Source: Opitutus sp.
GTDB lineage: Bacteria; Verrucomicrobiota; Verrucomicrobiia; Opitutales; Opitutaceae
NCBI GenBank assembly: GCA_024707325.1
Contig: JANPZY010000001.1
Location: 2,480,501-2,544,500 of the forward strand
Direction of reading: 5' to 3'
DNA: 64,000 nucleotides
The notes under the pieces: model-generated
The model's database searches: none
Told to the model about the DNA's origin: nothing
Seen by the model: the letters and a program-made list of their open reading frames with translations, nothing else
Translations under genes and position numbers: made by a program
Shown: positions 54,904 through 56,237 of the stretch, one piece after another
Layout of the letters: every line of letters begins with the position of its first letter
How positions within the stretch are numbered: the stretch's first letter is position 1

Positions 54904-56237
54904 GTCGTCAATATTTCGGCACCGATGGGGTGCGCGGACCCTACGGTGGTCCGGTGATCAATGACGAGTTCGCCGAGCGACTCGGCTTCGCGGCGGCGCG
55001 CTGGCTGCGAGGCGCGGGCACCGTCGTGATCGGCCGCGACACGCGGCAATCCGGTCCTGCGCTTGAAGCGGCGCTCACGCGCGGCTTGGTCGCCGGCGGC
55101 GTCGAAGTCGTTTCGCTCGGCGTGCTCCCGACACCCGCGGTTTCGCGCGCGGTCCGCGTGCAACAACGCGCCCTCGGTGTCGTCGTGACGGCGTCGCACA
55201 ATCCGGCCGAGGACAACGGCATCAAATTCTTCGGCGCGGCCGGATTGAAGCTCACCGACGCGCAGGAGGAGGGGATCGAGAAACTCATCCCGGAGCGGGT
55301 CGAGCCCGTGAGCGGACCGGGTCGGGACGAGGTGCGCACCGAGTCGAGCGGCAGTGCGGACTACGTCGCGACCATGTGCGGCTTGCTCCGCGCCAATGTC
55401 CTTCACGGTTGGCGCATCGTGCTCGACACCGCCAACGGCGCCACCTGCGCCACGAGCCCGGTCGTGCTGCGCGCGCTCGGAGCGGAAGTGATTTCGCTCG
55501 GCGATGCGCCCGATGGAAAAAACATCAACGCCGGCATCGGCAGCGAACATCCCGAAAAACTCGCCGCGCTGGTCCGCGAACGCGGCGCGCGGATCGGCAT
55601 CGCGCACGATGGTGACGGCGATCGCTGCATTCTTTGTGACGAGCAGGGCAACGTGCTCGATGGCGACGAGATTCTTACGATCCTCGCGACGCACGCCTTG
55701 CGCCGCGGCACGCTCACGAAGAACACGCTCGTCGTGACCGTGCAGAGCAATCTCGGCGTCGACGCCGCAATCGCGGCCGCGGGCGGCCGCGTGTGCCGCA
55801 CCCCCGTGGGCGATCGCTACGTGATCGAGCGAATGCGCGCCGAGGGCGCCACGCTCGGCGGCGAATCGAGCGGACACATCGTCTGCGCCGATATTTCGCC
55901 GACGGGCGATGGCCTGCTGGCCGCGTTGAAGGTCATCGATGTCATGCTCGAGACGGGCGAGCCGCTGTCGGCGTTGCGCCGGCGCTTGAAGAAGTTTCCG
56001 CAGAAAACCGCCGCGTTGCGCGTCGCGGAGAAACGTCCGCTTGAAGAACTCCGTTCCGTCAGCGCAGCCACCGCCGAACTCGAGGCGGCGCTGGGTGAGC
56101 GCGGCCGCGTGATGGTCCGCTACTCGGGCACGGAGGCCAAGATTCGCCTGCTTATCGAGGGACCGGATGACGCGACGGTCTCCGCTGGTATCAAGAAACT
56201 GGAGACGGCCGTGCGCGCCGATCTGCAGGTCTTGTAA
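54900..56237 (+). CDS. glmM: Phosphoglucosamine mutase, carrying an in-frame 22-bp-repeat segment
   Basis: MSRQYFGTDGVRGPYGG, VVVTASHNPAEDNGIKFFG, GIAHDGDGDRCILCDE, GGESSGHIV; ATGA overlap with trpD. Confidence 0.95.
   Translation: MSRQYFGTDGVRGPYGGPVINDEFAERLGFAAARWLRGAGTVVIGRDTRQSGPALEAALTRGLVAGGVEVVSLGVLPTPAVSRAVRVQQRALGVVVTASHNPAEDNGIKFFGAAGLKLTDAQEEGIEKLIPERVEPVSGPGRDEVRTESSGSADYVATMCGLLRANVLHGWRIVLDTANGATCATSPVVLRALGAEVISLGDAPDGKNINAGIGSEHPEKLAALVRERGARIGIAHDGDGDRCILCDEQGNVLDGDEILTILATHALRRGTLTKNTLVVTVQSNLGVDAAIAAAGGRVCRTPVGDRYVIERMRAEGATLGGESSGHIVCADISPTGDGLLAALKVIDVMLETGEPLSALRRRLKKFPQKTAALRVAEKRPLEELRSVSAATAELEAALGERGRVMVRYSGTEAKIRLLIEGPDDATVSAGIKKLETAVRADLQVL
55299..55386. repeat. 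22-bp-period array inside glmM (4 units, reverse orientation)
   Basis: gtcgagcccgtgagcggaccgg / gtcgggacgaggtgcgcaccga / gtcgagcggcagtgcggactac / gtcgcgaccatgtgcggcttgc; encodes VEPVSGPGRDEVRTESSGSADYVATMCG. Confidence 0.85.

What the first reader, a model, noticed from the sequence alone, without database searches (positions are those of the whole stretch)
55299..55386. 22-bp repeat inserted in frame inside the essential gene glmM
Four phased 22-bp units lie within the glmM reading frame and encode VEPVSGPGRDEVRTESSGSADYVATMCG. Intergenic arrays translate to near-identical peptides, e.g. VEPRSGHGRDKVRTTSSRSADRV at 40595-40819. The segment sits in the variable linker before the W-RIVLDTANGA motif, where GlmM proteins vary. 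It looks like a repeat colonising a coding gene, comparable in principle to Rickettsia palindromic elements in proteins.
Basis: partly seen in the sequence, partly recalled or inferred. Interest (0 to 1): 0.88.

Follow-up and report, generated by a model that had tools for sequence, protein, structure and literature searches.

The report
Dispersed repeat array in glmM linker
In one bacterium and its nearest sister, a short DNA repeat that otherwise sits between genes, in evenly spread arrays, has taken over the flexible hinge of an essential cell-wall enzyme without changing its length; repeats inside genes are known elsewhere, but this repeat family and its even spacing look new.

Summary
Window 55299-55386 is four consecutive 22-bp units (PWM 17.4, 23.7, 14.2, 18.8 bits; the flanking registers score -11.3 and -4.8) inside glmM (54900-56237). 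They belong to a family with over 1,000 relaxed two-unit matches in this 4.04-Mb genome and none in about 600 other genomes of the phylum. The glmM array scores highest of 948 CDSs. GlmM from the same species and from an 88%-identical sister keeps the peptide; 113 more distant homologues lack it.

The interpretation needs correcting. The segment is not an extra insertion: the linker is 27 aa, against 22-32 (median 25) in repeat-free homologues. The array replaced the domain I/II linker before the sister split. A few other genes also carry arrays, mostly in linkers. In one, a strain lacks exactly 22 aa (66 bp, three units).

In a 31% genome sample, arrays are overwhelmingly intergenic, enriched in convergent gaps (39% versus 5% divergent) and rarely under 5 kb apart (3-6% of neighbours; about 30% expected). 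Arrays resemble random draws of units, not copies of one another, and show no array-level hairpin selection.

Best reading: phased DNA-binding arrays of BIME-like function; the glmM copy is tolerated because the linker is unconstrained and the units are stop-poor. Intragenic repeats are already known (Rickettsia RPEs, O. terrae REPs).

The parts
54900..56237 (+). glmM (phosphoglucosamine mutase), 445 aa; overlaps the stop codon of the upstream trpD-like gene
   Evidence: Pfam PGM_PMM_I-IV; best PDB match 3pdk, phosphoglucosamine mutase, E 1e-101; ORF
55299..55386 (+). array of four 22-bp units coding for about residues 134-162 of GlmM (domain I/II linker and start of the next helix)
   Evidence: AlphaFold model: no regular structure about 128-145, pLDDT about 70, then helix 150-160
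55299..55320 (+). unit 1 GTCGAGCCCGTGAGCGGACCGG
   Evidence: 17.4 bits
55321..55342 (+). unit 2 GTCGGGACGAGGTGCGCACCGA
   Evidence: 23.7 bits
55343..55364 (+). unit 3 GTCGAGCGGCAGTGCGGACTAC
   Evidence: 14.2 bits
55365..55386 (+). unit 4 GTCGCGACCATGTGCGGCTTGC; overlaps the conserved helix Y-V/I-A-x
   Evidence: 18.8 bits
15206..15315 (-). intergenic array of the same family, convergent gap
22604..22765 (-). intergenic array of the same family
63331..63550 (-). array of the same family; its right-hand neighbour gene was not called within the window

Best explanation
The segment is a four-unit array of a lineage-specific 22-bp repeat (two 11-bp half-units, each with a near-palindromic 8-mer such as GTCGCGAC or GTGCGCAC). 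It occupies the domain I/II linker of GlmM. SHOWN: it is a genuine member of the family; it is shared by conspecifics and by an 88%-identical sister; it is absent from repeat-free relatives; it replaced the linker with almost no net change in length; other genes of the genome also carry arrays. INFERRED: the sequence entered before the sister split and was kept because the linker tolerates almost any sequence of about 22-32 residues and the arrays contain few stop codons, so an array trimmed to a multiple of three in length is translated harmlessly. INFERRED, less certain: the family's normal role is at DNA level between genes. Sites phased to the helix (11 and 22 bp), placed at transcript ends and at least about 5 kb apart, would suit a cooperatively bound protein that acts as a chromosome-structuring or supercoil-insulating site, as BIMEs are proposed to do in E. 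coli. The glmM copy is either a tolerated by-product or one such site.
For: Unit register and sharp ends. Family of 449 strict and 1,065 relaxed dimer matches in this genome, with 0 in the reversed-pattern controls. 0 in the other genomes tested from family, order and phylum. glmM is the top scorer of 948 CDSs and 32 relatives' glmM loci score at most -12.4. Peptide kept in P0002-P0007 and absent from P0008 onward. P0007 has K (GRDKVRT), as in the repeat consensus, where the window has E, which fits descent from a consensus unit. Linker length. Other in-gene arrays, one with a 22-aa (66-bp, three-unit) length difference between strains and one with a local 4-aa insertion against all outgroups. 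Arrays have more stop-free frames than random segments of this genome. Convergent enrichment 42/109 versus 7/150 divergent gaps, Fisher 5e-11 and 9e-6; neighbours under 5 kb 5.6% and 2.9% versus 33% and 28% expected. Autocorrelation at 11, 22, 33 and 44 bp.
Against: The DNA of the sister species was not available, so its repeat content is inferred from proteins only. Unit 4 overlaps a helix where V/I-A is ancestral, so part of its match may be fortuitous. No binding protein was identified and no binding was tested. That within-array and between-array unit similarity are almost equal (0.645 versus 0.624) leaves the route of spread unexplained.
Confidence: 0.72

Rival explanations
1. The glmM array was moved in as a block by a transposition-type mechanism (MITE-, REP- or RPE-like selfish element).
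For: Lineage-specific bursts, intragenic copies and preference for convergent gaps are typical of REPs (PMC3733652). A target-immunity rule could give the 5-kb exclusion (inference).
Against: No array resembles another more than random chimeras of units do (median best identity 0.80 in both). Array length varies (about 2-12 units). The only Y1 transposase-like gene (C3:104962-105231) has no array in its 3.3-kb locus. The unit consensus shows no GTAG tag. No target duplications were sought systematically.
Confidence: 0.2
2. The glmM array is a working chromosomal site kept by selection on DNA, because the spacing rule calls for a site in this 22.8-kb stretch.
For: Four of the five in-gene arrays sit in stretches larger than the typical sum of neighbouring gaps (percentiles 0.75-0.90). 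The unit sequence is kept in the sister at about the same rate as the rest of the protein (19/22 versus 0.88).
Against: Five cases only, not significant. Gaps of 30-48 kb exist without arrays. The conservation equals that of the protein as a whole, so no extra constraint is seen.
Confidence: 0.2
3. Chance resemblance: an ancestral GlmM linker that happens to look like the repeat.
For: The linker is variable, the genome is 63% G+C, and unit 4 overlaps conserved codons.
Against: Four phased units with clean ends; 84% identity to another array, E 2e-19; none of 113 other homologues carries the peptide.
Confidence: 0.02
4. The repeat-derived peptide has gained a function of its own in GlmM.
For: It has been kept since before the split from the 88% sister.
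Against: It evolves no slower than the rest of the protein (19/22 versus 373/423) and is modelled as a low-confidence coil.
Confidence: 0.05

Closest known systems
Rickettsia palindromic elements (RPE; Ogata et al. 2000, via PMC10969869)
   Same: A dispersed non-coding repeat family also present inside unrelated protein genes in frame.
   Different: RPEs are discrete ~150-bp palindromes encoding a conserved peptide, and nearly half lie in genes. Here a 22-bp tandem array, a few per cent in genes, no array-level hairpin selection, and replacement rather than net insertion in glmM.
GTAG/CGTC REPs and BIMEs, including the intragenic REPs of Opitutus terrae (PMC3733652)
   Same: High copy number, lineage-specific, mainly in convergent and unidirectional gaps, near gene 3' ends, sometimes inside genes. 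O. terrae, a Verrucomicrobium, has the most intragenic GTAG REPs.
   Different: No GTAG tag in the unit consensus, no flanked RAYT, 22-bp head-to-tail units instead of 20-40-bp stem-loops in alternating orientation, and exclusion below about 5 kb.
BIMEs as supercoil diffusion barriers (PMC6907758)
   Same: Proposed function and location between genes; about 600 sites per E. coli genome versus an extrapolated 360 here.
   Different: Sequence, architecture and binding partners; function not tested here.
ParR-parC type 11-bp iteron arrays (plasmid partition; from memory)
   Same: Helix-phased 11-bp direct repeats bound cooperatively.
   Different: One array per plasmid versus hundreds on a chromosome; no ParR homologue sought.

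Membership tests
REP/BIME | 20-40-bp stem-loop with an unpaired GTAG or CGTC tag | tested here: not met
   The PWM consensus GTCGMGMCNNNGTSCGSACNNN shows no GTAG tag; CGTC was not scored separately. Unit order adds no folding energy over random chimeras.
REP/BIME | RAYT gene flanked by the repeats | tested here: not met
   One Y1_Tnp hit, no arrays in its 3.3-kb locus.
REP/BIME | Extragenic, convergent and unidirectional gaps preferred over divergent | tested here: met
Rickettsia palindromic element | Palindromic element of about 100-150 bp | tested here: not met
   Tandem 22-bp units; half-unit 8-mers are near-palindromic (4.8-5.1 of 8 positions versus 2.1 random), but no array-level palindrome beyond unit composition.
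Rickettsia palindromic element | In-frame presence inside unrelated protein genes | tested here: met
   glmM, a conserved hypothetical, a protein with a GspB-like Pro-rich linker, a VanY-family gene and an 812-aa protein.
MITE | Terminal inverted repeats, target duplications, arrays related as copies | tested here: inconclusive
   No copy relationship between arrays; terminal repeats and target duplications not searched systematically.
BIME-like topological insulator | Blocks supercoil diffusion or binds gyrase or a nucleoid protein | not testable with these tools
   Needs in vivo assays.
Known structured RNA family | Match to an Rfam model | tested here: not met
   Only a tRNA in the window.

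The most novel reading that the evidence does not exclude
The genome carries a lineage-specific system of several hundred helix-phased arrays that are placed at transcript ends under a spacing rule (rarely closer than 5 kb, usually 6-10 kb), bound by an unknown protein that sets chromosome domains, and the need for a site overrode coding constraint so that arrays were accommodated in linkers of essential proteins such as GlmM.
Probability: 0.25. Interest if true: 0.85.

Novelty: new variant of a known kind. Interest (0 to 1): 0.56.

Why it matters
It is an additional lineage, with a different repeat architecture, in which dispersed intergenic DNA has become part of essential proteins, and it shows that such DNA can replace a linker rather than lengthen it. 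The family itself, with hundreds of arrays that keep at least about 5 kb from each other and cluster at convergent gene ends, gives a sequence-defined candidate for chromosome domain boundaries in a phylum where these are unknown.

Tried and rejected
Large-hairpin or terminator RNA: single arrays fold well against dinucleotide shuffles (z from -0.2 to -3.2), but chimeras of units from other arrays fold equally well, so no selection on array-level pairing. Recent tandem duplication as the source of arrays: within-array similarity 0.645 versus between-array 0.624. Block copying between arrays. Analogous arrays with another unit in the same-genus genome G001: none in 300 kb. Viral origin: no exact dimer match in IMG/VR. 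The GTDB r220 collection does not hold this genome, and its best GlmM hits were at most 67% identical. No paper describing this repeat was found in the searches made.

Full report
Window 55299-55386 consists of four head-to-tail 22-bp units in glmM (54900-56237, +). They match a 16-position consensus at 15, 15, 15 and 14 positions and score 17.4, 23.7, 14.2 and 18.8 bits with a PWM built from the genome, while the registers on either side score -11.3 and -4.8. Against its own genome the segment hits 46 places, best 84% over 82 bp, E 2e-19.

The repeat family. A strict two-unit pattern with up to 3 mismatches occurs 449 times in the genome, with 0 in the reversed-pattern control; a relaxed one 1,065 times. 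No match was found in the other genomes tested from the family, order and phylum, including the only other genome held of the genus (handles up to G613). The unit is two 11-bp halves, each with a near-palindromic 8-mer (commonest GTCGAGCC, GTCGGGAC, GTCGCGAC; GTGCGGAC, GTGCGCAC), and autocorrelation peaks at 11, 22, 33 and 44 bp. Arrays mostly hold 4-8 units.

Evolution of the glmM segment. Five other GlmM sequences at 98-99% identity carry the peptide, and so does P0007 at 88%. P0007 has GRDKVRT, the form given by the repeat consensus, where the window has GRDEVRT. From P0008 (73%) on the peptide is gone: a motif scan of 113 further homologues found none. At DNA level 32 relatives' glmM loci score at most -12.4 for three phased units, against 56.7 here. 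Between invariant E127 and Y155 the linker is 27 residues, against 22-32 (median 25) in the 113 homologues, and the best-matching solved GlmM structures have a linker of similar length. So the array did not lengthen the protein; it replaced the linker, or was inserted and trimmed. The segment lies between Pfam domains I and II; the AlphaFold model has no regular structure around 128-145 with pLDDT near 70, followed by a helix at 150-160.

Other genes. In the sampled 1.264 Mb (31% of the genome), glmM has the highest score of 948 well-supported CDSs. Next are a 225-aa protein with a Pro-rich linker (C1:12028-12705, -; GspB-like by my own reading, no Pfam hit) and an 812-aa protein with the array before its C-terminal part (C3:1811218-1813656, +). 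Two lower-scoring gene models also carry arrays. One is a conserved hypothetical (C3:2005084-2005764, +): a strain homologue lacks exactly 22 aa, which is 66 bp or three units, a homologue at 74% (probably the sister) retains repeat-like peptides, and distant homologues have other linkers. The other is a VanY-family gene (C3:1902443-1902973, -), where this species, a strain and a 74% homologue share a local 4-aa insertion at the array compared with the outgroups aligned.

Genomic distribution. Gene models were made by a simple home-made coding-potential finder, so class counts are approximate. Of gaps of 60 bp or more, 42 of 109 convergent, 54 of 406 tandem and 7 of 150 divergent ones hold an array (Fisher 5e-11 for convergent, 9e-6 for divergent). 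Distances to gene 3' ends have a median of 30 bp. Neighbouring arrays closer than 5 kb make up 5.6% (C3 sample) and 2.9% (C1 sample), against 33% and 28% when arrays are dealt to gaps weighted by class and length; the coefficient of variation of spacing is 0.66 and 0.52 against 0.92 and 0.85 (p 0.0003 and 0.0013). The most frequent distance is 6-9 kb.

How it spreads is not settled. Units in one array are hardly more alike than units of different arrays (0.645 versus 0.624), and arrays resemble each other no more than random chimeras do. That argues against recent block copying and against recent tandem duplication. Unit order adds no folding energy, which argues against selection for an array-long RNA or cruciform hairpin. 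What remains is helix-phased, near-palindromic sites whose order does not matter, which is what an array of protein-binding sites would look like. This is inference; no protein was identified.

Comparison with known systems. Repeats inside protein genes are known from Rickettsia (PMC10969869) and from REPs, with O. terrae holding the most intragenic GTAG elements (PMC3733652). Preference for convergent and tandem gaps is also a REP trait. The present family fails the REP tests made here (GTAG tag, flanked RAYT) and the RPE test of a discrete palindrome. BIMEs are proposed supercoil barriers, about 600 per E. coli genome (PMC6907758); the arrays here could work like that without being members.

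Verdict. The wider pattern, evenly spread arrays at gene ends, is the more unusual result and deserves testing on the whole genome and its relatives.

Noticed in passing
G000 C3:1300001-2100000, C1:1-400000 and the window: Arrays of the 22-bp family are rarely closer than 5 kb and typically 6-10 kb apart, enriched in convergent and depleted in divergent gaps.
   Followed up: partly
40690-40790: A separate hairpin of GTTCTC/GAGAAC hexamers follows the array at 40562-40693; similar clusters occur at about 8-10 per Mb in both this genome and same-genus G001 (C1:1177901).
   Followed up: partly
L217:5084-5764: Conserved hypothetical gene with an in-frame array; strain homologue P0122 lacks exactly three units (22 aa).
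   Followed up: yes
L212:2443-2973 (-): VanY-family gene with a two-unit array read antisense and a local 4-aa insertion shared only with a strain and a 74% homologue.
   Followed up: partly
L282 (G000 C3:104962-105231): Single Y1 transposase (RAYT-like) gene; no arrays of this family in the fetched 3.3-kb locus.
   Followed up: partly
39284-39356: tRNA gene on the minus strand; a single 22-bp unit lies close by at about 39182-39203 (-).
   Followed up: no
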